A stretch of 64,000 nt of DNA from Aphrocallistes beatrix (Eukaryota > Porifera > Hexactinellida > Sceptrulophora > Aphrocallistidae), in the NCBI GenBank assembly GCA_963281255.1, contig OY725497.1:3836968-3900967 (forward strand). Reading direction: 5' to 3'. Below the pieces are notes generated by a model that had not been told where the DNA came from, did not search any database, and saw only the letters and a program-made list of their open reading frames with translations. A program made the translations under genes and the position numbers. Positions 7,301-57,000 of the stretch are shown in pieces. Numbering within the stretch: position 1 is the stretch's first letter; each line of letters starts with the position of its first letter.

Positions 7301-7392
7301 CTTTCACTTCCTCTCCCTCTGCCACCCCCTCTGCTCCCTCTACCCCCACGACCTCCCCGACCACGAGCTCCTCTCCCACGTTGATCTGACAT
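4375..7392 (-). CDS. Argonaute protein (AGO clade), intronless, predicted slicer-competent
   Basis: Small-RNA-guided effector of RNA silencing, 1,005 residues in one exon. Order: an RG/GRG-rich tail (residues 1-35), a Ser/Thr/Pro-rich stretch (to about 105), ArgoN and linker 1, PAZ (about 350-460), MID, then PIWI. The MID 5'-phosphate pocket keeps the Y..K...Q...K pattern (YKHVKRI, SQCVKDK, CLKMNAKLGG). The PIWI catalytic tetrad is complete: D726 (GADVNHPHPG), E785 (ERLEMIDHF), D818 (YYRDGVSEGQF) and H956 (YYAHWVAF). About 20 extra, lysine-rich residues (KKDQPKGAPKKK) lie just before the glutamate finger and lengthen the D726-D818 spacing relative to human AGO2. The RG tail resembles PIWI-type arginine-methylation tails, but the core is AGO clade. 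Human AGOs are about 860 residues; the excess is mainly the N-terminal tail. Confidence 0.96.
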   Translation of the reverse strand: MSDQRGRGARGRGGRGGRGSRGGGRGRGSERGQGPQQEVAQALTAMNIQDRPTTTSSSTSSNSTSSPDEFRSLTPESLSPPLTLSEGSPGASFLPEEVTPAPPVADVRIGSSVSSSALVSGTNLYPPARPRSGHGTLGRRIALKINFFGIKIPDNTILNQYRVEIFDERRRNPEENVIQKHVCRSVWSAFLKQNSKELAPKFPVYDGQAALYTKQRLWGSNPGAFQTQVTWEDAEDGNRKRTHLLKIVHTGEVELSLLQRFIDRDRPYETADTRQREFDLGRSAIQAIEIILSQLPKSRYTTIGRSHYLDPGYKARNLGQGCDIWEGYYQSLRPGQWKPYINIDISFTAIMQDSNLLDFICDVTNTRHPLDALKGRNACEVINHLCGLKVTTKHMGYERTYKLCNEKKKVLGTKASEHKFELSDGTKTNSEKYFKEKYKIRIEFPNLPQVLVGRGNTLLPMELCTVVRGQHKKGKLTADQTSEMIKQAAMPADERMWKIEKVSKENLVATPLLDHYGIKINPNMLGVEGRVLDPPKITYENKDLVPRDGSWDLRGVRFKTAMTLDNWVIIDFVGVRNDALYNFLDELRGVGKNSGIMINDPRDVVCPKIHQNEDEFRKIGLIEDEFNKLFQKYNPMMFIIFLNEKKPFPLPNKEMYKHVKRICDYELGVLSQCVKDKNILKANKSTVANICLKMNAKLGGVNHVIDTSNTTFAHLFKKPIMFIGADVNHPHPGMDEVMPSIAAAVGSIDSKLAKYVSSVRFQKHSRTVEKKDQPKGAPKKKERLEMIDHFEDMCEELISAFKTNCKGRLPERIIYYRDGVSEGQFRKVLDKELNALRAACRRFSDEYQPAVTIVCVQKRHHLRMFPKNERDGVGRGKNVPPGCVVDTDVSHPVEFDFYLCSHFGLQGTSKPAHYHVLWDENNFDSNQLQALTYHLCHLYARCTKAVSIPAPVYYAHWVAFRAMMSTSFEDDSYSVRSGSSEGSDHIDWDEKRKKLKIKTGLMYWA

Positions 7393-35363: not shown

Positions 35364-37848
35364 CTTGTCAAGTTATCGAGGAATGCCTAGAGCTAACTAT
35401 CAGTATTAGCGTATCTATTCGAACATTATGTTCTGCCCAATTAATATTAACCTGTACGATATGCTACTATGACTACTCGGTTTGACATATTCATTATTCC
35501 ATCTCTATTTCTCAGCTGTGGTTAAAATGATGTAGCATACAGACATACACAAAAAACATATAATAGCGTCCTCTATTCAGAATTAATGTAGTTGATTAAA
35601 TATTATGTTAGATCCGAATACGTTCAATCGGTCATTTCGCGAAATGATCGAAGAGAAATGTTTGTGTTAATTAACCATATTATAAATGAAGAATATTTGT
35701 AATGCAGATAATTATTGTCTTGATCACAATTTCATACTCTATCTGATTTAAATTTTGTTCAGAAACTTTATGGATGACTATTAAGAAGTTTTGTACTTCG
35801 TTCTCGAAGAGGAGTATTGTGTGGCATCAGCTTTGAACATTTTAATTATCATATAATGTAAAGTCGTTAAGATTTATTTTAAAATACAGCCTTGCTTGCG
35901 CTGTGCGCTGGCAACACTTCGTGTCTACATGAGGCACCCTACGGGCGCCTCATTACTTCCATTATCTAAACGACAGATGCATCATATGTAGAATTCCTAA
36001 TTTCCTAGTACTGTAATTAGATGGTGACAATGGCATCATCATCCATTATGTAATTTTTTAGAATATACTCTTTTTTCACCTATCACATTACGTAATTATA
36101 TTTATGCTCAAATTACTGAATTTTTTTAAATAAAAAAATGGCAAACTATGTCATAATTCCGCGAAGAGTTAACTCTTTTGTCTGAGACTCTGGCAGCCAA
36201 AAAGAATCGCAATACCAGCCGCACTGTGCCCCCCCCGGTATATCTTCAAATATTATCTGAACGGTTATTAATTTAAATTTCCATCATCTACCTCCGCGTT
36301 TCTCAAACTGTGTTACGCGTCGACGCGAGCTCCTAGTGGAGCTATGGAGGTATATTTCTCATTTTTACGTTAAAAATACATCAATACTTAAATATTATTA
36401 AATGCCAGTCATAGTATATTTATAGTAATTTTACATTGTTTATTTTATGTGTTTTTCAAATGGTTTACAGGGGCGTGCACCGCATTGTTCACAGGCAGGG
36501 GTAGCGCCAGGAATTGCCCGATAGGGGGCTAAATTAGAGTGTCCTCTGAAATACCCAAATATTCTATTTATAAATCCAAGAGTGATCATATTTATTTTAT
36601 GCTTATAAGGAAATTCTACATTTAGGAAACTTTGCTTGGAATCTATTTATCACAATGCTAAGTCAGGCTTGCTGCCTCGATCTCGATGAATTCCTAGCAC
36701 TAATAATTATGCTCTCCAAATTGTCTTGTTATCCAATTGTTCTGAAATTATTGGCGACTCCTTACAGAAATAAAGAACTTTAGAGTGCATATTCTTTTTC
36801 TAAATTCTTCCAATTCTTTCCCCAACGGGGGGGGATGTAACCCCCCCTGGCGCCACCCCCTGTTCACAGGTTGCATGAGAACCCCCCTCCCCTCCGATTT
36901 TTATTCTCGTCAAAATCGTCAAATTTGTCAAATTTGTAGCACGAACCAGTTTGCGAAACCCCCTTGTTAGCTCGGGCTATGCCAATGCCGGGGCAATCCA
37001 CCCCCTGACAAAAGTTTAAATTTAGTCTCTAGTAATTTGTACTCCCATCAGGATTTAAAAACTATATTTTTGAAAAATATTGGATTTATTTTGTCAAAAT
37101 TTGAGGGATGTGGGCATATTTTGAGATAAATACCGTCAGTCCAGGGGCAAAGCCCCTGGACCCAACTGGGGGGCTTACACCGTCCCCCAGACCCCCATCT
37201 AACTGTTGTGTCCCTGCATCATAAAAACTGCTTTGTGTTTGTCCCCTAGAGGAAAATCCTGACGATGTCCTTGTTTGTGGATCCCCTTTTGACTCGGGGT
37301 ACGCCAATGTCTTATTTTGTGGGAGTGCATTTAAATAATCGGTCATTATGGTGATACGCGGAGAACATTTGCTGAAGCGGTACGCGGTGTAAAAGTATGG
37401 GAACCACTTATCTAAATGTAATATTTAAAAAAATAAAAACACATTCAGATACATTTAATTATACGTATATACGCGTTTTAGACTTGCTTTTAATCAACTT
37501 TAATGTAATTCAAGTGAATCAATAAAAAGTTACTCCCTAGTCCCCCTTAATAACCTTGGAAAAATTTGGAATTTTTCTATTTATAGTAGTAACCCCAAAC
37601 TTATATGGCTTCCCCGTTGAAAATGGCTTAAACCGGAAATGACGCAAAACCTTCCTGTGGCAAGCGTGGTTATTAATTAAAATTAGTCATATGTATCCCG
37701 TCAGGTTTCGAATAGGCATAATAGGAATTCAAATACTACATCCATGTTACTCACGTGTCTGGTTAGTATAAAAAGAAACCAACAACTGATTCGACATAAT
37801 ATTTTACTTTTTCCTTGCTCCAAGTAATTTCTCATTCAAGTATTTGCT
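35364..37848. other. Intergenic region rich in transposon fragments
   Basis: 2.5 kb with no gene. It contains a degraded copy of the interspersed family (about 35888-36245), the hAT-like MITE at 36496-36862, and GC-rich fragments near 37130-37400 (GGGGGACGGTGTAAGCCCCC on the minus strand; GGGAACCAC near 37400) that look like ends of further hAT-type elements. Confidence 0.6.
36496..36862. mobile_element. hAT-like MITE with exact 8-bp TSD TTCACAGG
   Basis: 367 bp. The left end reads CAGGGGTAGCGCCAGG and the right end, on the minus strand, reads CAGGGGGTGGCGCCAGG. TTCACAGG occurs directly at both sides (36488-36495, 36863-36870). No coding capacity. Confidence 0.9.
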
Positions 37849-40800
37849 ATGGCGAAAATGACAGACAGCATTGACCATTCTCTGGTCCGCTCCACCAATG
37901 TTCAATTTCAAGAAGGACACGTCACGAGAGGGATGCGCTCCATGACCTTCGGATACCGCGGGAAGTTTACCGGATGTACTGTCTGGTTCACGGGCTTGTC
38001 CGGTTCTGGAAAGACAACGGTCTCCTTCGCTCTTGAGAACAGACTGTGTTCCCAGGGTCTGCCTTCGTACGGACTCGATGGAGACAACATCAGAACGGGA
38101 CTCAACAAGAACCTCGGCTTCAGTCCTAATGACAGAGCGGAGAACATTAGGAGAATTTCAGAGGTGAGTATCGTCATGCTTTCAGCTATCACAGGTCTTC
38201 ATTTAGTAATTTTTCCAAGGGGGGGCGAAACGAGTGTTCGTGTACGTAGGGCCCGTCCTGTAGGTGGGTGTGGGGGCATGCCCCCTCAGGAAATTTTTGT
38301 TTTTTCAAGCATGCTCTGGTATTAATTTAACTTCTGTGCGAATTGGGAAATCTTCTGCTTGTAGAAGCACTTACTATAACAAAGTACAATTAGACAATTA
38401 TGTCGATCACAAAAGCTTAACTAATAAATCTTGCACGATTATTATCAATCATACATTAAGTAGACACCCTGTCTTGTAAAAATGGTGCTAAGACCACATT
38501 TATCCCTCAACCGTGTTAACTTCTAATTTAATTAAATTCTTGTGACATTTAATTTTAAACTCAAAATAGTTTTACAGCTAGACTCAGCTTTGAAGTGTTC
38601 TAAATCTAAATCTAAATCTAAATCTAAATCTAAATCTAAATCTAAATCTAAATCTATATATACAATATATATATTTGTTACTATTGAAAGGTTCACCTAA
38701 ACTCCAAGGAGTGGGCAGTTGTTCCCTCCCTAAATGAAGCCCTGTATCATCAGTAAGACAGTAACATCCAAACCGAACAAAATAAACTACTTACCGGTGC
38801 TATTGTAGGTATCCAAACTTTTTGCAGACTCAGGAATGGTATGCTTGGCTAGCTTCATCAGCCCTTATGCCAAGGACAGAGAGAAAGCGAGAGAGATCCA
38901 TGAGGAGGCAGGACTGAAATTCTTCGAAGTGTACCTCTCTACTCCTCTCAACGTAAGACGAATATCTATATCGATGCCTTGTGTAGGTTGCTTCATTTCA
39001 TATTATTCCATTTCAGATATGCGAGGAGAGAGATGTGAAGGGACTGTACAAGAAAGCTAGGAATGGGCTGATCAAAGGCTTCACGGGTATAGACTCAGCC
39101 TACGAGGCTCCTGTCAACCCCTCTCTTGAGTTAGACACGAGCAAGTTGAGTGTTCCTGAGTGTGTAGAGCAGATGATGGAATTGCTGAATCGGAATGATG
39201 TCATCCCTGCACAGGCGTTGCAGTCAGTGAAAGAGTTGTTTGTGCCTGTGGAGCATAAGGAGCAGTTGAAGAGTGAGGCGGAACTGATGCAGCGAGTGGA
39301 CCTCACAAAGTTAGACATGCAGTGGCTACAGGTGAATGTGAATGCTTACACCAGTTCTAACTAGGTTCACTAACCCGTGGAAATTTAATGAGGAATTTTA
39401 ATGTAATTCCTAGCTTACACCATACCGAGTAATTATCATAGTTTGCTCACCTCAGTTAATAATATCCCCAAAAATAACGAAACAATCCACGTTACACATA
39501 GGTTACTAGGAATGCTTGTTGTAGGTTCTATCTGAAGGCTGGGCCAGCCCCTTGTCAGGGTTCATGAGAGAGGATGAATACCTCCAAACACTCCACTTCA
39601 ACAACCTGCTAGGACAAGGCCTCTACTCCCAATCTGTCCCCATCGTACTCCCAATCTCAGACGAGCTTAAAAAGACGCTAGAGCAGAACGGAGAGAGAAA
39701 TGTGGCTCTCTACTACGAGGAGAAGATGATAGCCTACATGACTGACATTGAAGTGTTTCCTCACCGGAAAGAAGAAAGGTGTTCCCGTCAGTTCGGGACC
39801 TCACACGAAGGCCATCCTTACATTGCTATGATAAAAAAATCAGGAGACTGGCTACTAGGAGGAGATCTGAATGTGAGTGCATCCTTGTGCATTCTTATAA
39901 TTATTTTCAATGTAGAAGGTTGGTAGCACAATAATTACACAGAAGAATGGGTGTGTAGGTGTTTGAGAGAGTGTACTGGGGAGATGGTCTCGACGCATAC
40001 AGGAAGAAGCCTCTTGAACTGAGATCGGAATTCAAAGAGATGAGTGCAGACACTGTGTTTGCTTTCCAACTGAGAAACCCGATTCACAATGGACACGCGT
40101 GTCTGATGCGTGACACGAAACAGCAGCTGTTGAAAAAGGGTTATAGGAAACCAGTTCTACTCCTCCATCCACTGGGTGAGCAATGTGCAATAATGAACTT
40201 TTAAGATTTCTTTTCGTTCTTTGAAAAACTTACAGACCGGAGTCACGGGACGGGACGAGAGTGTGCTTCTACATTCTTTGCAAAGTTAACAATATTTGAC
40301 TTCAAGTTTTGCATAATGAGTATATATTTTTAAAAATAATTTTGGAAAATATATCCCCATGCACCCCAGAGTGTCTCTACCGGCACGCAGCGAAAGCAAG
40401 CGATTCGCGCTTGTACGCGTACGTATTGAAAATCGTAGGGCAAATCAACGTATGCTATATACTTGTAGTAGTCGCACCGTCATTATCTGGTCAGCCAAGG
40501 CCGGACTCCGATCATCAGGACTTATCTCAATAGTGTCTGTCATAGACAATTAGTATTGTAGCAAAGTATAGGACAAAAATGTATGTGAGTTTTGAGGATA
40601 TTATACATTGTACAGGTGGTTGGACTAAGTGTGATGATGTCCCTCTTGACGTAAGGATAAAACAGCACCTCGCGGTGATAGAGGAAGGTGTCCTGGACCC
40701 ACAAGCCACCGTGCTGGCCATCTTCCCCTCCCCCATGATGTACGCAGGACCCACAGAGGTGCAGTGGCATGCCAAGGCAAGAGTGGCTGCAGGCGCTAAG

Positions 40801-41136
40801 TTCTACATCGTAGGGAGGGACCCCGCGGGGATGCCACACCCAGACAAGTCTGGAGACCTCTACGACCCCACACACGGACGGAGGGTGCTAAAGATGGCCC
40901 CGGGTCTCACTCAATTGGAGATTGTTCCGTTCAAGGTGGCCGCTTATAATAAGAAAGAGAAAATGATGGCATTCTTCGACCCCGAGAAAGCTGACGAATT
41001 CGAATTCATTTCCGGTACCAAGATGCGCGCGATGGCACGCGAGGGGCGAGACCCTCCTGATGGATTCATGGCTCCTACTGCTTGGAAAGTAATGTCGGAT
41101 TACTACAAAGGCTTAGCGACATCTGGAAAGGACTGA
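37849..41136 (+). CDS. PAPSS: Bifunctional PAPS synthase, tandem copy 1 (six exons)
   Basis: Makes the universal sulfate donor PAPS from ATP and sulfate: an APS kinase at the N-terminus and an ATP sulfurylase at the C-terminus. Exons 37849-38163, 38809-38952, 39017-39331, 39525-39872, 39959-40175 and 40616-41136 join to 619 residues (human PAPSS1 is 624). The kinase P-loop is GLSGSGKTT, with [17 protein letters not shown] and [11 protein letters not shown]. The sulfurylase has [11 protein letters not shown] (HNGH motif), [14 protein letters not shown] across the last junction, [28 protein letters not shown] and [10 protein letters not shown]. Copy 2 lies 1.46 kb downstream. By eye the two proteins differ at about 15 positions, roughly half of them in exon 2. 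Intron 1 holds an (AAATCT)n array. Confidence 0.96.
38601..38655. repeat. (TAAATC)n hexanucleotide array in PAPSS copy 1 intron 1
   Basis: About nine perfect copies of the hexamer TAAATC followed by a short AT run. Copy 2 lacks it; its intron 1 is only 80 bases long. Confidence 0.95.
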
Positions 41137-41445
41137 TGCCTCCTCAGCTCAGTCTATTAATTAAATAACTTAGTTCTTGTTTATAGATTTGGATTGCATT
41201 CTTCGCAATACAGTAGTTTATTCTATGAATATGTTCATCCTGTGATAATTATTCTATGAATAATTCACTCCCTTTGTATAGATTAGCCTTAATTCTCTCA
41301 AGTATTTTATTGACTGTTGATTGAGTAAATTCTTGAATGGGTGTAGTTCAAGTAAAAATTCATGATGATCTGTGGCTTTGACTGAATTCTGCGATGACTG
41401 ATGACCTGAGCTGTTTGTCAAGTGCCAATCAGCAAATACCTAATG

Positions 41446-41617
41446 CAGCGGTTTTCAACCTTTTTCTGCTGTGGACCCCTATTGCAAGTTTCCCATTGTC
41501 TGTGGACCCCCTGAGGTCCTCCCATTGACAGTAATACAAATTTTCAAATCTCGTGGACCCCCTGGAACCGTCCGTGGACCACCAAGGGGTCCATGGACCC
41601 CAGGTTGGGAAACACTG
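41446..41617. mobile_element. hAT-like MITE with exact 8-bp TSD ACCTAATG
   Basis: 172 bp between the two PAPS synthase genes. The left end reads CAGCGGTTTTCAACCTTTTT and the right end, on the minus strand, reads CAGTGTTTCCCAACCTGGGG. ACCTAATG is duplicated at 41438-41445 and 41618-41625. The interior repeats GTGGACCCC. The termini match the CAGnGGTTnnCAACCT type common in hAT/Charlie elements. Confidence 0.92.
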
Positions 41618-42593
41618 ACCTAATGAAATAGAACTTTATAGACTTTTCCCACATCGGACTCATTAACGGCACGGAGGTCCCTTCTTTCCCCCAAATATGT
41701 TAGCTCCCTAGAATTTATAGCTGCTTCTCATTGATAGTAGATTAATATTATTCGTCTTGAAATTTAAGCATTTACGTTACATTGTTTATCTAGAAATTTT
41801 TGCGGGCTTTTCGCGGGTTGGGCTGGGCCAGGTTGCAATACAATTGCGGGCCTCAATAATTAGACTCCGATCGAAAAGTGGGTCAAAACATGGATGCAAA
41901 ATGGAAGAAAAATGAATGAAAAATGGTCTGAAAATGAACAGAAATGGATGAAAAATGAAATTGAAACAAGATTGAAACAATAATAAGATAAAATTGAGAC
42001 AAGATTGGGACATGACTGAGACAGAGCATTCTGGGTCACCATAGTGACTCAACTGACTTACTAAGTTCCTCAGTAATTTAGTTCAATGGACGCGTTCGGC
42101 TGTCATACTGACCCGAGCTATCCAATGGAAATCATCTGAAGCAGGAAAGGGAAAACTCTCCATTCCAACTTATCCCAGGGAATAGCTTTAAAGGACCCAG
42201 GAACACCGGTACATGGAGTAAAGATACATTTCAAATACTCTCCATCGCTAACCCATTCACGGGCCAGGAGCGGTACAGTAGTTCGTTGGTTGGTCGAGCT
42301 TATGACAAGCAGGAATCACTACGAATGAATATGGAGCACATTCCACTGATCTGCGGGTACTTCAGGTGCTATGAAAAGGGGTCTAAGCTCCAAGGAAATA
42401 CAAACTGCAGCTGGTGGTCTAGAGAGACCACTTTAAAAGATTTACCCCCGGAACCATCCACAGTTAGTACGCATTCAAGTTGCTAGTAGAATGTAGAGTT
42501 CTCGTGAATGAGGCGATTTGTATAAAAGAAATCAAACAACCGACTGAAAACTCCAATATTTGAGTAATATTATTCTCAACTCAATCATTTACT

Positions 42594-45500
42594 ATGGCGA
42601 ACAGAAAAGAAAGCATTGACCATTCTCTGGTCCGCTCCACCAATGTTCAATTTCAAGAAGGACACGTCACGAGAGGGATGCGCTCCATGACCTTCGGATA
42701 CCGCGGGAAGTTTACCGGATGTACTGTCTGGTTCACGGGCTTGTCCGGTTCTGGAAAGACAACGGTCTCCTTCGCTCTTGAGAACAGACTGTGTTCCCAG
42801 GGTCTGCCTTCGTACGGACTCGATGGAGACAACATCAGAACGGGACTCAACAAGAACCTCGGGTTCAGTCCTAATGACAGAGCGGAGAACATTAGGAGAA
42901 TTTCAGAGGTGAGTATCGTCATACTTTCAACTATCAGTAAATCCAAACTGATCATAATAATTATGTTTACCTTTTATTTCTTGTGCAGGTATCCAAACTT
43001 TTTGCAGACTCAGGAATTATATGCTCGATTAGCTTCATCAGCCCTTATGCCAAGGACAGAGAGAGAGCGAGAGAGATCCATGAGGAGGCAGGACTGAAAT
43101 TCTTCGAAATCTATATCTCTACTCCTCTCAACGTAAGACGAATATCTTGTGTAGGTTGCTTCATTTCATATTATTCCATTTCAGATATGCGAGGAGAGAG
43201 ATGTGAAGGGACTGTACAAGAAAGCTAGGAATGGGCTGATCAAAGGCTTCACGGGTATAGACTCAGCCTACGAGGCTCCTGTCAACCCCTCTCTTGAGTT
43301 AGACACGAGCAAGCTGAGTGTTCCTGAGTGTGTAGAGCAGATAATGGAATTGCTGAATCGGAATGATGTCATCCCTGCACAGGCGTTGCAGTCAGTGAAA
43401 GAGTTGTTTGTGCCTGTGGAGCATAAGGAGCAGTTGAAGAGTGAGGCGGAACTGATGCAGCGAGTGGACCTCACAAAGTTAGACATGCAGTGGCTACAGG
43501 TGAATGTGAATGCTTACACCAGCTCTAACTAGGTTCACTAACCCGTGGAAATTTAATGAGGAATTTTAATGTAATTCCTAGCTTACACCATACCGAGTAA
43601 TGATCATAGTTTGCCAAAAATAACGAAACAATACCTTCGATTACTTTGGGGAGAATTGAATCAAAACAATCTACGTTACACATAGGTTACTAGGAATGCT
43701 TGTTGTAGGTTCTATCTGAAGGCTGGGCCAGCCCCTTGTCAGGGTTCATGAGAGAGGATGAATACCTCCAAACACTCCACTTCAACAACCTGCTAGGACA
43801 AGGCCTCTACTCCCAATCTGTCCCCATCGTACTCTCAATCTCAGACGAGCTTAAAAAGACGCTAGAGCAGAACGGAGAGAGAAATGTGGCTCTCTACTAC
43901 GAGGAGAAGATGATAGCCTACATGACTGACATTGAAGTGTTTCCTCACCGGAAAGAAGAAAGGTGTTCTCGTCAGTTCGGGACCTCACACGAAGGCCATC
44001 CTTACATTGCTATGATAAAAAAATCAGGAGACTGGCTACTAGGAGGAGATCTGAATGTGAGTACATCACTGTGCATTCTTATAATTATTTTCAATGTAGA
44101 AGGTTGGTAGCATAATAATTACGCAGAAGAATGGGTGTGTAGGTGTTTGAGAGAGTGTACTGGGGAGATGGTCTCGACGCATACAGGAAGAAGCCTCTTG
44201 AACTGAGATCGGAATTCAAAGAGATGAGTGCAGACACTGTGTTTGCTTTCCAACTGAGAAACCCGATTCACAATGGACACGCGTGTTTGATGCGTGACAC
44301 GAAACAGCAGCTGTTGAAAAAGGGTTATAGGAAACCAGTTCTACTCCTCCATCCACTGGGTGAGCAATGTGCAATAATGAACTTCCATACTGAGCATCCT
44401 ACCAATCATACGTCCACTTCTTCAACTTTTTATTTAAGAGATATTATACGTCCAATTGTGTGGTTTATAAATCATAGATTTACATTCCATATTATGTAAT
44501 TACAAGCGCGCTTCGCTTGCTTGCGCTGCGCGGCTGGCGGACACTTTGTGTCCGCCGGAGGCTCCCTTCGGTCGCCTGGATGTGACATTGGTTAATTATA
44601 AGGGAGATAACATCTCTAAATATGTCCATCTTAGTGTTAAAACCGATTTCACTCGAAAAATCACAAAATTTGTCAATTTTAAAATTTTTGATGCGTAATG
44701 ATGACATCATAACAAAGTGATGAGTCATCATTTTTTTATGAAAGTCGCATCATATGTGAGATATGTTAGTATACAGTTTCTATTAAAATTTCAGCCTTCT
44801 ATCTCCTATAATGGCTGAGTTATGCCCGAAAACTGTGTTGCTTAACTTTTAAAAATGTGACAATGACGTCATAATTCCATGATGAGTCGACATTTTGCTC
44901 TGAACTCAGAACTTACTGGAGCCATAGCCAAAAGAATCCCACATGCCAGAAATCAGCCTTCTGCGCCCGGCAGTTTCTTCAATCAATTCGTTACAGATAT
45001 ATATAGATATATATATACAATAATCGAGTTTTAATAGTAAGGATAAGTTGCTACAAGCAAAACTACCAGCATAATATTTGTCATTCTACTTAACATTTCT
45101 TCAGTTTTAAGTTTATTTTATCTCTTCTTTTTTGTGAGATATTAATCTTAATATGAAATTAGGTGATGAAGACGCGTTCTCGCGTAACTTCAAATAAGTT
45201 AGCGCGGGGCAATTTATGATTGAATTAAGACAGAAATAGGTTTTTGACGAGGCATCTACCTTCGATATGAATATAGACTCATCTCAATAGTGTCTGTCAT
45301 AGACAATTAGTATTATAGCGAAGCAACAATACTAAGTAGAGAACACAAAAAAATGTAAGTATGAGTTTTGAGGATATTATACGTTGTACAGGTGGTTGGA
45401 CTAAGTGCGATGATGTCCCTCTTGACGTAAGGATAAAGCAGCACCTCGCGGTGATAGAGGAAGGTGTCCTGGACCCACAAGCCACCGTGCTGGCCATCTT

Positions 45501-45912
45501 CCCCTCCCCCATGATGTACGCAGGACCCACAGAGGTGCAGTGGCATGCCAAGGCAAGAGTGGCTGCAGGCGCTAAGTTCTACATCGTAGGGAGGGACCCC
45601 GCGGGGATGCCACACCCAGACAAGTCTGGAGACCTCTACGACCCCACACACGGACGGAGGGTGCTAAAGATGGCCCCGGGTCTCACTCAATTGGAGATTG
45701 TTCCGTTCAAGGTGACCGCTTATAATAAGAAAGAGAAAAAGATGGCATTCTTCGACCCCGAGAAAGCTGACGAATTCGAATTCATTTCCGGTACCAAGAT
45801 GCGCGCGATGGCACGCGAGGGGCGAGACCCTCCTGATGGATTCATGGCTCCTACTGCTTGGAAAGTAATGTCGGATTACTACAAAGGTTTAGCGACATCT
45901 GGAAAGGACTGA
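42594..45912 (+). CDS. PAPSS: Bifunctional PAPS synthase, tandem copy 2 (six exons)
   Basis: Same product and exon structure as the upstream copy: 42594-42908, 42989-43132, 43185-43499, 43709-44056, 44143-44359 and 45392-45912, again 619 residues, with exon lengths identical one by one. All catalytic motifs are intact ([20 protein letters not shown]). Differences I can see: the N-terminus (MANRKES in place of MAKMTDS), GIICSIS for GMVCLAS, EIYIS for EVYLS, and a few single changes in later exons. Short introns 2-4 are also close to those of copy 1, so duplication or conversion is recent. Intron 5 carries interspersed repeat copy 2. Confidence 0.96.
44501..45046 (+). repeat. Interspersed repeat family, copy 2
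   Basis: Same layout as the copy at 30227: TACAAGCGCGCTTCGCTTGC, GGACACTTTGTGTCCGCCGG, a TGATGAGTCATCA block, GCGCCCGGCAGTTTCTTCAA, GTTAC, a short AT tract and GAGTTTTAATAGTAAGGATA. It lies in the last intron of PAPSS copy 2. No transposase is encoded. Confidence 0.85.
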
Positions 45913-47739: not shown

Positions 47740-48078
47740 ATGTCAAGACAATCCAGACTGATCCGATCTCTACGCAACTTCCTTTCAGGGAGAGACATGG
47801 ACCTCCATCCTAATCACAGGTCTGTCGAAGCTCAATCCTCCAGGTCAATCCCCCCACCCTATCTTCCCTCTGGCGCAGCTCATAAGCTAGCAGATAACTA
47901 CTACTACTCACGGGACAAACGGAGCCAAGTTGTTCCGCCTACAATAATCAGTACTAATACCCCGACACAACTAGCAATTGGCACTAACAAGAATCTACTG
48001 GAAACTGTGAAAAAGGACACATTGAGCGACACTCCACCTGTGCCTGGACGGGGTCATGAATGGGTCGAGATAGTCTGA
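47740..48078 (+). CDS. NDUFA7: NDUFA7, accessory subunit of mitochondrial complex I
   Basis: Accessory (B14.5a) subunit of NADH:ubiquinone oxidoreductase, on the matrix side. 112 residues from ATG 47740 (human 113). Landmarks: SRLIRSLRNFLSGRD near the start, PPPYLPSGAAHKLADNYYYS, then RDKRSQVVPPTII, all matching the family pattern (PPP.LP.G..HKL..NYY..RD.R....PP.II). A ttttttcag directly upstream of TTTCTAATG could be the acceptor of a 5' UTR intron. It is followed on the same strand, 254 bases on, by the microprotein ORF. Confidence 0.88.
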   Translation: MSRQSRLIRSLRNFLSGRDMDLHPNHRSVEAQSSRSIPPPYLPSGAAHKLADNYYYSRDKRSQVVPPTIISTNTPTQLAIGTNKNLLETVKKDTLSDTPPVPGRGHEWVEIV

Positions 48079-48332
48079 ACCTCCTTGTCAACTGCCTCAT
48101 TCGAATGTGATTGCATGAATTGTTAACCTCACTAATCCAATGAATATCTATAGGTATTGTGATGAAGAATGATTCAACTAAGTACTAGTGCCATGACCTA
48201 TGCTTTTTATTTTAGTAATGAAACAAAATTTTCAGAATGTCTCTACCCATAGAATTGCCATGTTAATATCATGTTACTAGATATCTATTGCACGTGTGTA
48301 GCCTAGCATGTGCCTCATCTACTCACTCTAAT

Positions 48333-48575
48333 ATGGACAAAAGAAATTCAGGAAAGAAAGGGAAAGTCGAACTATTCTCATCTGCAAATTCTGTCAACTA
48401 CCTCAAAGGATTTCTTACCGGATTCATTTTCGCTAACCTCAATAGACATCTTTTCATTGGTTTCATAGTTGGGACTGCAGCAGGCCTTTACTTGGAGCAA
48501 CAGTCACCTGATTCATTCCTGGACATAGGCGAGTATCTCCGAGACCTGAAACACCGTATCACTAGAAAGGACTGA
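48333..48575 (+). CDS. SLC35A4-MP-like mitochondrial microprotein
   Basis: 80 residues from ATG 48333. The central part YLKGFLTGFIFANLNR followed by HLFIGFIVGTAAGLYLEQQ and the closing helix IGEYLRDLKHRI aligns by eye with human SLC35A4-MP (FLKGFLAGYVVAKL, LGFAVGTCTGIYAAQ, LRDYLQLLRK), a single-pass inner-mitochondrial-membrane microprotein encoded upstream of SLC35A4. STMP1 also shares part of the GFxxGNxxGxYLAQ pattern and is the alternative assignment. The start codon context is strong (A at -3, G at +4). The stop TGA (48573-48575) is separated from the EI24 ATG (48577) by one base, so both ORFs probably share one mRNA. No splice acceptor exists between them. Confidence 0.8.
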   Translation: MDKRNSGKKGKVELFSSANSVNYLKGFLTGFIFANLNRHLFIGFIVGTAAGLYLEQQSPDSFLDIGEYLRDLKHRITRKD

Positions 48576-48576
48576 A

Positions 48577-51513
48577 ATGGAGGCGGTACAGGCTTTCGTT
48601 TCCTCTTTCTTCGCAGGACTGGTCGATTCAGTGAGAGGAGTATCTCTGTTCATTGAACTCATCAAACAGCATAATGATATTAAAAAAACTTTCCTTAACT
48701 CGGTATTCCTTAATATTTTCGTCCTTGCATTCAGTGTCCTCACTCTAGAATACTTGGTCTACCCCGTCTTCTATTACCTGCTCCATTTCCTTTACGGTCT
48801 CCTATTCCCTGGAGATACCACGAAGGACATGATCGGAGTGGTGATCACGGTGGTATCCTATGTGATTAACGGTCTGTGGATTCTCCCTCTTCTCTGGATC
48901 AGTAAAATTATCAACATTCTCACATTCCAGAAGATGGCCTGGGCGGCTTATAGGGCTACGTACTCTCCAAAAGATAGAAATTCTCGAAGCCCCAACCACG
49001 AGCTCAGCAAATCTGTTACCAGTGAGTTATTTTTGATTTTTGATATATCAATATGCGTACGTGCATAAGTGAGAAGCTAGTTTTGTTCCCAAGTACTATA
49101 TTATGTAGGTTCTCAACTTGTTTGCATAAAATTAATCAAATTTCATTGTTTAAAGTAATTAAACAGAGGGACGATAACGCTTTTCGCAATCAGGAATTCA
49201 TATTTCGATGCATATGAACTACTCAAGATGAGCCTGAAAATGGCATGCTCTATGAATTATTTAGGGATGTTTGGGACATTTTTTTTGCATCCTAAAATAT
49301 CTTCACCTTTAGGTGATGAGCATCGTCCAAAATGAATAACTTTTACAAAAGATATTAACGTTTAAAAGCATTTAAAACAGATTAAGAATCTAAAGTAATA
49401 TATTTTGATTAGCACTTATGATGACTTCATACTTCACAGTTAAATTAAAAAGCACGCGATTCAGTGTGTCCAGGAAGTGTAGCTCGTGTAAATTAATGCA
49501 AATACTGTGTGGCTATTACATATTCATCGAATCCTTAGCTAAAAAGGCTACAATTACATACTACTCTGATTTGTATCCCTGGAGGCTACATCAATTTAGA
49601 GTTTATTTAATGTACCATATTTTGTTTCCTCAAAGATACTACCCTAATTAAGGACAAGCCCACACAAATCTAAATGTGAATTAATTTCTGGAATCGCCAA
49701 TTTATATTTGACACAATTTAATTAAACTGGTAGTTTTAGCTTAGAGTACGCTGAGACAAGAAGTATTGTAAATTACTATCATATAGTTTTGAATATGCGA
49801 TATTCGGAATCTACTCCCTAAAACCCAGGCCAACCGTTGGAAGCTAGTGTCTAGCATATTTTAAAAATTAGCCAAAAGGTGTGAAAATATACACCTAATC
49901 TTTTTTAGATATATACGCTATCAGAAACATCCTTGCTATTAAAACTCGATTAATGTGTATGGTGTATATATCTATCTGTCTGTAACGAATTGATCAAAGA
50001 AACTGCCAGGCACAGAAAGCTGATTTTTGGAGTCTTTTGGCAATGGCTCCACTAAGTTCTGACCTCAGACGAAAATGGCGACTCATCATGGAATTATGAT
50101 GTGTTTTTATGATTAGAAATTTCAGCTTTTCGACTATAACTCACCCATTTTAGGTGATAGAAGGCTGAAATTTTAATATAATATGTATATTAATATTCTT
50201 CACATCTGATGCAACTATCAAAAAATGATGACTCATCACTCTGTTATGACATCATCATTACGCATCAAAAAGTAAAAAAATGACAAATTTTGTGATTTTT
50301 CGAGTGATATCAATTATAACAGTAAGACGTATTTAGAGATGCTATCTACCTTATAATTAATCAATGTGAGCTTAGGCGCCCAAAGGACGTCTCTGGCGGA
50401 CACTTTGTGTCCGCTAGCCGCGAAACGCGAGCAAGTGAATCGCGCTTGTATGTATATATAAGTTACTTTGAAGCAGTATTATTAACAACGACAGTTTATT
50501 GTAGCGTCGCACAGTGATTTGCAGAGTGAAACCATATACTATAATATATAGAAAAGGTGTGAAAAATGTTGTTGGGTTTTTTTTCAGAGGTGTGAAATTT
50601 TCGCTTAGATATTCGATTTTATTTTAGACTCACCATTTGACACCTACATGGCAATTTTCACATTTCTATGATTTGCAAGTTCTCCAATTAATTCGGACAG
50701 AAAAGAAACAAACCAACTAGCGTTTTTAATATACTGTTGTATAAGAGAATGTCAAATTTGACTATTAAATAGGTCTTCACCTCACCAAGGAGAGATTCGA
50801 TATGATCCTATTTTAGAACTTAGTATATACGTAGTCGGGTGGTTGAATCACTAGATTACTTTTGTATCACGTATGTGTACCCCTCAGCTCACATTTCTCG
50901 CATTCTTGCTGACTGCATATTCGGAATGGTGATAGAGCTATTATTCATGCTACAGTCAATCTGCATCTCATTTGTTCCTGTTATCGGCTCTCTCGCATAC
51001 ATTCTGCACTTGTCCATACTTAACGCACTCTACGCATTCGAGTACAAGTGGATGCACCAAGGAATAGAGACGAAGACTAGACTCAGAATCATACACTGTG
51101 GTAAATTCTGGCTTATTCTACTATAAATCTCCTAAGATATCGCATACAAGTTCATTTAATTGCTGTTTGCTGTATTACGAACTTTAATCCATCTTCATTT
51201 AGGCTGGCCCTATTTCATCGGGTATGCTTCCATCCTGACACTGGCTACTTTCATTCCTTCTTCTTTCGTCCTGAGTGCATGCATCTACTCGGCCTTCTTC
51301 CCTCTCTACATTGTTAGCGCGTACCCAGCTAAAATTAAATTTTCTCATCACGCGATCCCACAGCTGCGAATTTTCACACTCTCAAGCCTAGCTGCAGACA
51401 AGATGTTTGTCAAATCGACAGGTACACGGAGTCCTGGACCAGAGAAGAGAAAGCATGCGCGAGATGTCACTCAGTCTATTCCTGATAACATCACAAGCTC
51501 AGATTCTTTATAG
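48577..51513 (+). CDS. EI24: EI24 (autophagy-associated ER membrane protein), three exons
   Basis: Multi-pass ER membrane protein involved in autophagy and in ER-mitochondria contacts. Exons 48577-49021, 50888-51100 and 51203-51513 join in phase (A|CT, G|GC) to 322 residues (human 340). Matching features: the N-terminal FFAGLVDSVRGV helix, several membrane segments (LNIFVLAFSVLTLEYLVYPV, VINGLWILPLLWISKIIN), then SRILADCIFGMVIELLFML, LSILNALYAFEYKWMHQGIE, WPYFIGYASILTL, and PLYIVSAYPAK before the cytosolic tail. Its ATG context is strong (G at -3, G at +4) and lies one base after the stop of the microprotein ORF. Intron 1 (1.87 kb) holds an inverted copy of the interspersed repeat. Confidence 0.9.
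49930..50450 (-). repeat. Interspersed repeat family, copy 3 (inverted)
   Basis: Minus-strand copy of the family at 30227 and 44501. Reading the plus strand it opens with TCCTTGCTATTAAAACTCGA, passes through GTAACGAATTGATCAAAGAA, and ends with CGCGAGCAAGTGAATCGCGC and TTGTA. It lies in EI24 intron 1. Confidence 0.82.
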
Positions 51514-52117
51514 TGACAGTGTATGCAATCTGTAATGTATAATAAATGATTACACTATGTCCTATGTCTGGTGGCACTCGACTCGAGACACATCGAGTCT
51601 CGATATTTCGTCCCCATTAAAATTTCCAATTATCTGATGTAATTTAATATTAATTCCTATATATGGGAGGAATTCAGTCCCAAGAGATTTGTCCAAATTA
51701 AGTGGTTGTCCCGATTAATCTCCCAATTAAATGAGTGCCATACCCCCACCCGTAGCTTCCTCTGGATACGCCACTGGTTCAGATAGAGAGAAAGTCGATT
51801 ATTTATTTGGACACCATTCACTCAAGATTGGCCTCGTGTACCTTTTAAATTTATTTTAATCCAGGGCATATTTTCCTGCATCAACCTTGCCATGTGTTTA
51901 GGATCATTGTCCTGACTACTGACTAGGAAGCTAAGTGGAAGACATAAGCTTGTGCAGTCAATGTCCATTTAAAATATTTTTTACGATTATGCATTCAACA
52001 TTTGTGGGACCATTGTTTGGATCTAAAAATTAAGAAAATGAACAGATTAATAAATATTAACGATATAGTTTAAAAATTTTAAACTAATGTAACGTTTGTA
52101 TTGATTTTATAGCTATC
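51514..52117. other. Intergenic region, no gene seen
   Basis: 0.6 kb between EI24 and MMTAG2. GGTGGCACTC near 51572 and GAGTGCCATAC near 51733 could be weak inverted ends of an old element. Just before the MMTAG2 ATG the sequence TTTTATAG|CTATC looks like a 5' UTR acceptor. Nothing else can be supported. Confidence 0.5.
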
Positions 52118-54065: not shown

Positions 54066-57000
54066 ATGATGCTATCCCAGGTGAGTCGTAGAGAAGCTGA
54101 AGATGTGTTTGACGCTTGTGATGAGGATAATAAGTCTTATCTGAACAGAGAGGATTACAAAACTGCAGTCATTTCTTTGTTTGGACTAAAACCAACCGAA
54201 GCTGAGGTCAACGAGGTATTTTCTGCAGATCCAGAAAGAAAGGATGAAGGTATGTGTATATACAGAATATACAAATGAGATTAACTCTATAAAATTTATG
54301 AACAACGCAATATTTCCTTTGAAAATTATGCTACATAAATATATACGAGTGGAATCATAGTCATGCAAGTAAGTGTGCTGTAAGTTAGATCATTTCTAAC
54401 GTTTTTAAAAGGGAGCTGCTGAAATGTGGCAGACAAGCTTGTCAAAAGATCAGGTCATTACTTGACCTGACCTTTGAGTGACCAACTCATCAGGCGAACA
54501 ACAAACCAGGAAAATTCAATTCGATTCGATCGGTCCCCTGTATCAATCCCATCATATCAGATTAATTTGAGTAAAATTATAAGCGTCTTCAATACTTTCA
54601 TCAATCAATGTTATAACACGTGTTATAACTTGTGTTATAACACGTGTTATAACATGTGTTATAACACGTGTTATAACTCGTGTTATAACATGTGTTATAA
54701 CACGTGTTATAACTCGTGTTATAACACAAGTTATAACACGTGTTATAACACGAGTTATAACACGTGTTATAACTCGTGTTATAACACAAGTTATAACACG
54801 TGTTATAACACGAGTTATAACACGTGTTATAACACATGTTATAACACGTGTTATAACACGAGTTATAACACGTGTTCAATACTTTCATCAATCAATGTTA
54901 TAACATGTGTTATAACACGTGTTATAATACAAGTTATAACACGTGTTATAACATATGTTATAACACGTGTTATAACTTGTGTTATAACACGAGTTATAAC
55001 ATATGTTATAACATATGTTATAACACGTGTTATAACACGTGTTATAACATATGTTATAACATATGTTATAACTCGTGTTATAACACGTGTTATAACATAT
55101 GTTATAACTCGTGTTATAACACAAGTTATAACACGTGTTATAACACATGTTATAACATTGATTGATGAAAGTATTGAACACGTGTTATAACTCGTGTTAT
55201 AACACGTGTTATAACATGTGTTATAACACGTGTTATAACATATGTTATAACACGTGTTATAACTTGTGTTATAACACGTGTTATAACATGTGTTATAACA
55301 CGTGTTATAACACGTGTTATAACATATGTTATAACATATGTTATAACTCGTGTTATAACACAAGTTATAACACGTGTTATAACTTGTATTATAACACGTG
55401 TTATAACACATGTTATAACATTGATTGATGAAAGTATTGAACACGTGTTATAACTCGTGTTATAACACGTGTTATAACATGTGTTATAACACGTGTTATA
55501 ACATATGTTATAACACGTGTTATAACTTGTGTTATAACACGTGTTATAACTCGTGTTATAACACGTGTTATAACTTGTGTTATAACACGTGTTATAACTT
55601 GTGTTATAACACGTGTTATAACTTGTGTTATAACACGAGTTATAACATATGTTATAACACGTGTTATAACACGTGTTATAACATATGTTATAACATATGT
55701 TATAACTCGTGTTATAACACAAGTTATAACACGTGTTATAACTTGTATTATAACACGTGTTATAACACATGTTATAACTTGTATTATAACACGTGTTATA
55801 ACACATGTTATAACATTGATTGATGAAAGTATTGAACACGTGTTATAACACGTGTTCAATACTTTCATCAATCAATGTTATAACATATGTTATAACACGT
55901 GTTATAACACAAGTTATAACACGTGTTATAACTTGTATTATAACACGTGTTATAACACATTTTATAACATTGATTGATGAAAGTATTGAACACGTGTTAT
56001 AACTCGTGTTATAACACGTGTTATAACACGTGTTATAACACAAGTTATAACACGTGTTATAACATATGTTATAACACAAGTTATAACACGTGTTATAACA
56101 TATGTTATAACACGTGTTATAACACAAGTTATAACACGTGTTATAACATATGTTATAACACGTGTTATAACACATGTTATAACACGTGTTATAACACGAG
56201 TTATAACACGTGTTCAATACTTTCATCAATCAATGTTATAACATGTGTTATAACACGTGTTATAATACAAGTTATAACACGTGTTATAACTTGTGTTATA
56301 ACACGAGTTATAACATATGTTATAACATATGTTATAACACGTGTTATAACACGTGTTATAACACGTGTTATAACATATGTTATAACATATGTTATAACTC
56401 GTGTTATAACACAAGTTATAACATAACGAGCACCCATAGGGACACATTAGGTAATATTATATACGTACTACGATATCTAAGTGAAACTATTCGACCGCAC
56501 TAAATTTTCCATACAATAATATTGAAGTGCTTATACCTTAATAGTCCTATGCACTCGAAATGTTGAATATTCTTTGTGGCCGGCACTCACATAATATACG
56601 AAATTAAGCATTATCCATCTACCCGCAGGCCGCAGTAGATATGTATACTGTAGGCTACTGGTGCTTTATTTCTCTGCCTTTGTTAGCTATCGAGGCGTTG
56701 GGGATAAGGAAAGATAGGTTCGTCAATATTATGTTGTGGAGAAGTGGGTCTGCTCTCAATTGCTACAATTATGAGCGACTTTTATTTGACGCATTCGATC
56801 CTTTGCAAGATGGAGTTATCAAGCTGGAGGACTTTGAGAGTGTTGTGCGCGAGTTCTACCCAAAGGTAATTATAGAACCTGTGAAGTGTGTTTAGGTTAG
56901 GCCATGGAATTATGACCAACCACATTCATCATTTCAATATTTTTAGGGGCTGAAATTTTTTTAATTTTCTATGTCTTATCCTCAATAAATAATGTTATTT

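What the first reader, a model, noticed from the sequence alone, without database searches (positions are those of the whole stretch)
48333..49021. Bicistronic pairing of a SLC35A4-MP-like mitochondrial microprotein with EI24, one base apart
Seen: an 80-residue ORF with SLC35A4-MP-like sequence ends TGA and, after a single A, EI24 starts ATGG. Both start codons have strong context, and no splice acceptor or promoter-sized space separates them. Known: in vertebrates SLC35A4-MP is translated from an upstream ORF in the SLC35A4 mRNA. Inference: the microprotein is an ancient gene that rides in dicistronic mRNAs, here with a different membrane-protein partner, and the TGA-A-ATG spacing favours termination-reinitiation. 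A coupled mitochondrial inner-membrane microprotein and an ER/autophagy protein linked to mitochondrial contacts would be a previously undescribed unit.
Basis: partly seen in the sequence, partly recalled or inferred. Interest (0 to 1): 0.85.

Follow-up and report, generated by a model that had tools for sequence, protein, structure and literature searches.

The report
Mitochondrial microprotein-EI24 two-gene mRNA candidate
In a small, sponge-like animal genome, a gene for a tiny mitochondrial membrane protein that was thought to exist only in vertebrates ends one base before the start of EI24, an ER protein, so the two are probably read from one messenger RNA.

Summary
An 80-codon ORF (48333-48575, TGA) is followed by one A and then the ATGG of EI24 (48577). 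The 80-residue protein is a strong homologue of human SLC35A4-MP/STREMI: score 97 against a shuffle mean of 24, 0 of 3000 reaching it; 16/33 identities in the ungapped membrane core; five membrane glycines at the same spacing. STMP1 and MIC10 have their own genes elsewhere in this genome. EI24's start is supported by N-terminal similarity to human EI24 (3 of 5000 shuffles reach it). The 2026 STREMI paper calls the protein vertebrate-only and dates its pairing with SLC35A4 to jawed vertebrates. Here it lies in a 100.5-Mb genome, probably a sponge's, beside a different partner whose CDS keeps introns. One shared mRNA is likely but unproven: no transcripts or related genomes were available. ORF1 holds no internal ATG, which suits leaky scanning; the 1-nt gap suits reinitiation. 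An EI24-only transcript starting or spliced inside ORF1 is not excluded. The N-terminal helix needed for human STREMI targeting is absent. Verdict: real, a new variant of a known kind, worth testing.

The parts
47740..48078 (+). NDUFA7 (complex I B14.5a) CDS, the upstream neighbour on the same strand, 254 nt before ORF1
   Evidence: Pfam PF07347 E 8.2e-24; frame checked
48079..48332 (+). 254-nt gap between NDUFA7 stop and ORF1: 12 upstream ATGs, no AATAAA or ATTAAA (AATGAA twice), a T-rich acceptor-like site ending at 48215
48308..48331 (+). 7-codon uORF ending TAA-T-ATGG directly before ORF1, weak start context
   Evidence: may be chance
48333..48575 (+). ORF1: 80-aa STREMI/SLC35A4-MP homologue, first cistron
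48576..48576 (+). single-base intercistronic spacer (A) between TGA and ATG
48577..49021 (+). EI24 exon 1 coding part; N-terminus similar to human EI24 from residue 2 on
48679..48684 (+). ATTAAA inside EI24 exon 1, a possible poly(A) signal for a microprotein-only mRNA
   Evidence: use not tested
50888..51100 (+). EI24 exon 2
51203..51513 (+). EI24 exon 3 to stop
51541..51546 (+). AATAAA poly(A) signal after EI24, the first AATAAA after the NDUFA7 start

Best explanation
ORF1 is a genuine protein-coding gene, an orthologue of STREMI/SLC35A4-MP (a two-helix mitochondrial membrane microprotein), and forms the first cistron of a dicistronic mRNA whose second cistron is EI24. Transcription most likely starts in the 254-nt gap after NDUFA7 and ends at the AATAAA at 51541; introns 1 and 2 of EI24 are spliced out. 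Most ribosomes translate ORF1. EI24 is made by those that miss the ORF1 start (the next AUG they can meet is EI24's) and perhaps also by ribosomes that restart after the TGA one base upstream. ORF1 therefore also acts as a repressive uORF that limits EI24, as STREMI's ORF does for SLC35A4 in humans. Shown: both genes, their spacing, homology, single place in the genome and the AUG-free first cistron. Inferred: the common mRNA, the translation route, the mitochondrial location and the regulation.
For: Homology to recalled human STREMI, with the recalled letters checked against residue numbers printed in PMC13303939 (length 103, G54/G71/G75, L52/A69/C73). Five membrane glycines with identical spacing, human 50/54/67/71/75 and window 26/30/43/47/51. 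C-terminal amphipathic segment kept. Separate STMP1 and MIC10 genes in the genome. EI24's N-terminus resembles the human one from residue 2 on (7 of 27 identical, score 38 against shuffle mean 17.3, 3 of 5000 reaching it), so its start lies one base after ORF1's stop, and any EI24 5'UTR must lie in or beyond ORF1 unless an exon is spliced into it. No ATG inside ORF1 in any frame. No AATAAA between the NDUFA7 start and 51541, and no ATTAAA before 48679. Human precedent of STREMI as a repressive first cistron.
Against: No transcript or ribosome data and no related genome. ORF1's start context is strong, which limits leaky scanning. Reinitiation after an 80-codon ORF is usually poor in animals (recalled). 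Acceptor-like sites inside ORF1 would allow an EI24-only mRNA, and an ATTAAA at 48679 could end a microprotein-only mRNA. The absence of out-of-frame ATGs in ORF1 is wholly fixed by its protein sequence (synonymous null P=1), so it need not be selected. Human STREMI (recalled) passes the Pfam STMP1 profile PF15054 (37.1 bits, cut-off 28.3) while ORF1 does not match it at E<=10. AlphaFold without an alignment gives one long helix 17-55 rather than a hairpin, at low confidence. The N-terminal helix that targets human STREMI is missing.
Confidence: 0.65

Rival explanations
1. Two overlapping monocistronic transcription units in a compact genome: the microprotein mRNA ends inside EI24, and EI24 has its own start site or a first exon joined inside ORF1.
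For: Acceptor-like AGs at 48445 and 48468 with 13/19 and 14/19 pyrimidines, comparable to the modelled EI24 acceptors (12 and 14). An ATTAAA at 48679, 104 nt after ORF1's stop, and further ones in EI24 intron 1. Spliced-leader trans-splicing is reported in the glass sponge Aphrocallistes, in 4% of long reads (PMC10282587, passages).
Against: No AATAAA lies between ORF1 and 51541. An EI24 promoter would have to lie in conserved coding sequence. No spliced leader was looked for here.
Confidence: 0.22
2. The two cistrons share an mRNA but are coupled mainly by termination-reinitiation at TGA-A-ATG rather than by leaky scanning.
For: Single-base spacing. In an activated yeast strain, 80S-mediated reinitiation works with one base or none between cistrons and weakens with longer spacers (PMC11952965, passages). 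Both start contexts are strong.
Against: The yeast effect needed an activated strain. A reinitiating ribosome does not need an AUG-free ORF1. RNA folding of 48333-48632 is no stronger than shuffles (z 1.17, 181 of 200 shuffles fold at least as well), so no structural element is indicated.
Confidence: 0.3
3. A three-gene unit, NDUFA7-STREMI-EI24, transcribed together and resolved by trans-splicing or internal promoters.
For: Same strand, 254-nt gap, no AATAAA until 51541 and no ATTAAA until 48679; T-rich acceptor-like site ending at 48215 (14/19 pyrimidines).
Against: Twelve ATGs in the gap would block scanning from an unprocessed mRNA. Two AATGAA variants in the gap could serve as the NDUFA7 poly(A) signal. 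No spliced leader was looked for.
Confidence: 0.1
4. One fused protein split by a sequencing error at the junction.
For: EI24's frame is open upstream of its ATG back to 48550, so a one-base error could join the two.
Against: Both proteins keep natural ends: ORF1 has 24 residues after the aligned Gln and human STREMI 23, and EI24's N-terminus resembles the human one. EI24's frame is closed by a TGA just before 48550.
Confidence: 0.03

Closest known systems
STREMI / SLC35A4-MP (alt-SLC35A4, uSLC35A4), 103-aa microprotein of the human SLC35A4 mRNA
   Same: Core with five glycines at identical spacing, 16/33 core identities, C-terminal amphipathic segment; upstream ORF ahead of a membrane-protein gene of the secretory pathway
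   Different: 80 rather than 103 residues, lacks the N-terminal helix 11-28; partner is EI24, not SLC35A4; 1-nt spacing; very probably a non-vertebrate genome; no match to PF15054, which human STREMI passes
STMP1 / mitolamban (Pfam DUF4535, PF15054)
   Same: Homologous second helix and GxxxGxxxG motif
   Different: STMP1 lacks the first helix with its glycine pair; alignment score with ORF1 only 44 (human, 1 of 3000 shuffles) or 28 (own genome, 264 of 3000) against 97 for STREMI; a separate STMP1 lies at C1:7969149
MIC10 (PF04418)
   Same: Glycine motifs in two membrane segments (paper's statement)
   Different: Separate MIC10 gene at C18:823051; local score 31 with ORF1, reached by 108 of 3000 shuffles
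EI24 / PIG8 (PF07264)
   Same: EI24 with three coding exons; one match in the genome at E<=1
   Different: Preceded one base upstream by another coding ORF; no paper in the library holds EI24 with 'bicistronic' or 'upstream open reading frame'
Human bicistronic mRNAs such as MIURF-MIEF1, PYURF-PIGY, ASDURF-ASNSD1
   Same: Two conserved proteins in one mRNA
   Different: Different proteins, human examples. Here the downstream CDS keeps introns, unlike SLC35A4's intronless CDS

Membership tests
STREMI / SLC35A4-MP | Sequence homology across both helices, beyond what STMP1 shares | tested here: met
   Score 97, 0 of 3000 shuffles; block shuffles 0 of 5000 for each of 4 block sizes; human letters recalled, checked against printed residue numbers
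STREMI / SLC35A4-MP | GxxxG motifs in both membrane segments (G54, G71, G75 mutated in the human work) | tested here: met
   G26, G30, G43, G47, G51 align with human G50, G54, G67, G71, G75
STREMI / SLC35A4-MP | Two membrane segments in a hairpin | tested here: inconclusive
   Hydropathy profile resembles human; single-sequence AlphaFold gives one helix 17-55, pTM 0.38
STREMI / SLC35A4-MP | N-terminal amphipathic helix (human 11-28) needed for mitochondrial localisation | tested here: not met
   ORF1 is shorter and has a basic N-terminus instead; an upstream exon joined in frame between 48267 and 48332 is not excluded (first in-frame stop at 48264)
STREMI / SLC35A4-MP | C-terminal amphipathic helix (human 87-103) | tested here: met
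   Moment 0.58 at 61-78 against 0.67 in recalled human at 86-103; helix 60-79 in the model
STREMI / SLC35A4-MP | Match to PF15054 (human STREMI passes it) | tested here: not met
   ORF1 0 families at E<=10; recalled human STREMI 37.1 bits, cut-off 28.3
STREMI / SLC35A4-MP | Mitochondrial location and MIC10 binding | not testable with these tools
   Needs cell experiments
STREMI-SLC35A4 bicistronic transcript | Downstream partner SLC35A4, intronless | tested here: not met
   Partner is EI24 with two introns in its CDS; the 4 SLC35A-type matches lie on C7 and C19, not C11
STMP1 (PF15054) | Match to the family profile | tested here: not met
   0 families at E<=10; the profile alone does not separate the two families, since human STREMI passes it
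MIC10 (PF04418) | Match to the family profile | tested here: not met
   0 families for ORF1; MIC10 found elsewhere
EI24 (PF07264) | Match over the curated cut-off and conserved N-terminus | tested here: met
   41.6 bits against 32 for the spliced protein; N-terminal alignment, 3 of 5000 shuffles
Dicistronic mRNA | Both complete ORFs on one mature transcript, both translated | not testable with these tools
   No RNA data for this genome

The most novel reading that the evidence does not exclude
STREMI is an ancient animal gene that has become the leading cistron of a two-protein mRNA at least twice independently, with SLC35A4 in jawed vertebrates and with EI24 here, each time placing an ER or Golgi membrane protein under translational control of a mitochondrial microprotein ORF. 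With EI24, an ER-mitochondria tether acting through VDAC, one mRNA would supply both sides of the contact site, with stress shifting output from the cristae protein to the tether.
Probability: 0.4. Interest if true: 0.85.

Novelty: new variant of a known kind. Interest (0 to 1): 0.68.

Why it matters
It contradicts a 2026 statement that STREMI homologues are exclusive to vertebrates, moving the gene back to early animals if orthology holds. It gives a second, apparently independent bicistronic partner for the same microprotein, so whether the microprotein ORF itself favours downstream ER/Golgi partners becomes testable. Because the downstream CDS keeps introns, the retroposition route proposed for SLC35A4 does not fit here in its simple form. 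A conserved protein hidden in a 5'UTR-like position may also be missed by annotation in other invertebrates (inference).

Tried and rejected
Rejected: ORF1 as STMP1 (separate STMP1 gene, much weaker alignment); as MIC10 (separate gene, weak alignment); as a chance ORF; as part of an EI24 fusion (both ends resemble the human ones); as a retrocopy or repeat (one place found in the genome for 48079-49021).

Led nowhere: searches for relatives in viral contigs (3 of 8 scans used), one genome-contig scan (a second was allowed and not run), plasmids (one weak hit, E 0.1), phages. None of these collections is meant to hold animal genomes, so the misses say nothing about conservation. PDB sequence searches with ORF1, recalled human STREMI and the own STMP1 gave only chance-level matches (best E 2.7, 0.15 and 0.63). 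RNA folding over ORF1 shows no unusual structure (z 1.17). Silicatein as a sponge marker: of 32 C1-peptidase matches I read nine starts; six keep CGSCW, L035 shows no such motif, L037 and L038 read CGGGW, none has Ser for Cys, so the sponge class is undecided.

Errors found and mended: the NDUFA7 piece used for codon usage was one base out of frame; one search repeats the test in frame with nearly the same result (P0 0.072 for shuffled residues, 0.005 for random codons; before 0.079 and 0.006). The synonymous test gives P=1, so absence of out-of-frame ATGs cannot be claimed as selection at the DNA level. For that I lowered the main explanation from 0.68 to 0.65 and the three-gene rival from 0.12 to 0.10, and raised the separate-transcript rival from 0.20 to 0.22.

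Full report
What is there. The window lies in a 100.5-Mb genome of 28 contigs (G000:C11:3836968-3900967). ORF1 runs 48333-48575 (80 codons, TGA); one A follows; EI24 starts at 48577. EI24 has three coding exons in the best-scoring splice model (48577-49021, 50888-51100, 51203-51513), 322 aa, Pfam EI24 E 2e-10. Its residues 2-28 align with residues 3-29 of recalled human EI24: 7 of 27 identical, score 38 against a shuffle mean of 17.3, 3 of 5000 shuffles reaching it. This supports the start codon. ORF1, the spacer and EI24 exon 1 are one uninterrupted stretch of 689 bases. The stretch 48079-49021 was found once in the genome, ORF1 once, and EI24's domain once at E<=1 (2 candidates scored, exon by exon, 25.6 bits).

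What ORF1 is. Against human SLC35A4-MP/STREMI (recalled; its length and six residue numbers agree with those printed in PMC13303939) the local score is 97 against a shuffle mean of 24, 0 of 3000 reaching it. With shuffles inside blocks of 5, 8, 10 and 15 residues, which keep the hydrophobic pattern, 0 of 5000 reach it in each. The ungapped core has 16 of 33 identities. Five glycines have the same spacing (4, 13, 4, 4) in both. Against recalled human STMP1 the score is 44 (1 of 3000), against the genome's own STMP1 28 (264 of 3000), against its own MIC10 31 (108 of 3000). For scale, recalled human STREMI and human STMP1 score 74 with each other (0 of 3000), so the two families are related through the second helix. 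The STMP1 family is found elsewhere in the genome (C1:7969149, 38.6 bits, cut-off 28.3), as is MIC10 (C18:823051, 48.5 bits, cut-off 24.1). So three small membrane proteins of this kind coexist, and ORF1 is the STREMI one. Against full equivalence: recalled human STREMI passes the STMP1 profile PF15054 (37.1 bits), while ORF1 matches no Pfam family at E<=10. Human STREMI's N-terminal helix (11-28), whose deletion mislocalises it, has no counterpart; ORF1 has a short basic N-terminus. A single-sequence AlphaFold model gives one helix 17-55 plus 60-79, with pTM 0.38, which neither supports nor excludes a hairpin.

Which organism. Not given. Homeodomain search: 19 matches from 24 candidates, a lower bound. 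I read 18 of the 19 (L022 was not read on its strand); by eye and from memory they include Msx/NK-like, POU, paired-like, LIM, SIX and TALE types, and I saw no Hox gene. With the small genome this fits a sponge and makes a vertebrate very unlikely. Of 32 cathepsin-type matches I read nine starts; none shows a silicatein-like Cys-to-Ser change, so the sponge class, and strictly the phylum, is open.

How it may work. EI24's start lies one base after ORF1's stop, so unless an exon is spliced into ORF1, every EI24 mRNA carries ORF1 or part of it in its 5' leader. ORF1 has no internal ATG in any frame. For random codons of this window's usage the chance of that is 0.005; for shuffled ORF1 residues 0.072; 7 of 300 overlapping coding windows, all in NDUFA7, are also ATG-free. 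But with the real protein sequence the chance is 1 for any synonymous choice: the protein alone dictates it. It therefore permits leaky scanning without proving selection for it. The single-base gap is the kind of spacing at which 80S reinitiation was seen in an activated yeast strain, where longer gaps lowered output (PMC11952965, passages). Folding shows no special RNA structure. In human cells the STREMI ORF represses SLC35A4 and stress relieves it (PMC13303939 section 11); start-codon loss raised SLC35A4 in a second study (PMC10908861 section 11). By analogy I expect ORF1 to limit EI24. The gap before ORF1 (254 nt) holds 12 ATGs, so the mRNA start is probably close to ORF1. This is inference.

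Alternatives. Acceptor-like sites inside ORF1 at 48445 and 48468 resemble EI24's modelled acceptors in pyrimidine content (13 and 14 of 19 against 12 and 14). An EI24-only mRNA made by cis- or trans-splicing into ORF1, or an internal promoter, is therefore open. An ATTAAA at 48679 in EI24 exon 1 could end a microprotein-only mRNA. NDUFA7 ends 254 nt upstream on the same strand. From its start to EI24's exon 1 there is no AATAAA and no ATTAAA, only AATGAA twice in the gap and weaker variants in ORF1 (AATAGA, AAGAAA), and the first AATAAA is at 51541, so a three-gene unit is conceivable.

What is known. PMC13303939 (outline, passages and sections 7, 10, 11, 13 and 42 read) states that STREMI homologues are exclusive to vertebrates, that STMP1 is in land plants and metazoans, that lamprey and hagfish have STREMI away from SLC35A genes, and that the bicistronic mRNA arose in jawed vertebrates, likely by retroposition of the intronless SLC35A4 CDS. 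The present locus disagrees with the first point and shows a second pairing in which the downstream CDS keeps introns. The genome's SLC35A-type matches (4) are on C7 and C19. EI24 promotes ER-mitochondria contacts through VDAC2 (PMC6063967 abstract and outline) and is listed as a tether in a complex with IP3R1, Grp75 and VDAC1 (PMC7487091 passages; PMC7314981 passages). One group found human uSLC35A4 to bind VDAC1/3 and placed it in the outer membrane, against the inner-membrane placement of PMC13303939. A functional link of the two products is thus conceivable, not shown. In the library, no paper holds EI24 with 'bicistronic' or with 'upstream open reading frame'; SLC35A4 with uORF and 'invertebrate' gives one review (listing only). 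Subscription papers and preprints are not covered.

Verdict. The dicistronic mRNA is likely, the translation route undecided, and conservation of the pair untested.

Noticed in passing
window 37828-45912: Two tandem PAPSS-like genes on the + strand: APS kinase exons at 37828-38322 and 42564-43094, ATP-sulfurylase exons at 40546-41133 and 45361-45912, PUA_2 at 39525-39923.
   Followed up: no
window 54609-56423: About 152 copies of a 12-bp unit TGTTATAACACG, largely its own reverse complement, with long open frames on both strands that look like repeat artefacts.
   Followed up: no
window 48308-48331: A 7-codon uORF ends TAA-T-ATGG directly before ORF1, so two successive stop-one base-start junctions occur in a row.
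   Followed up: partly
window 47740-51546: NDUFA7, the microprotein and EI24 follow each other on one strand, and the first AATAAA after the NDUFA7 start is after EI24.
   Followed up: partly
window 11141-13402 (-) and 4378-7392 (-): A HAP2-GCS1 gamete fusogen and an Argonaute, each matched within one long uninterrupted reading frame.
   Followed up: no
L037 and L038 (G000:C17): Cathepsin-like proteins in which the usual CGSCW active-site stretch reads CGGGW.
   Followed up: no
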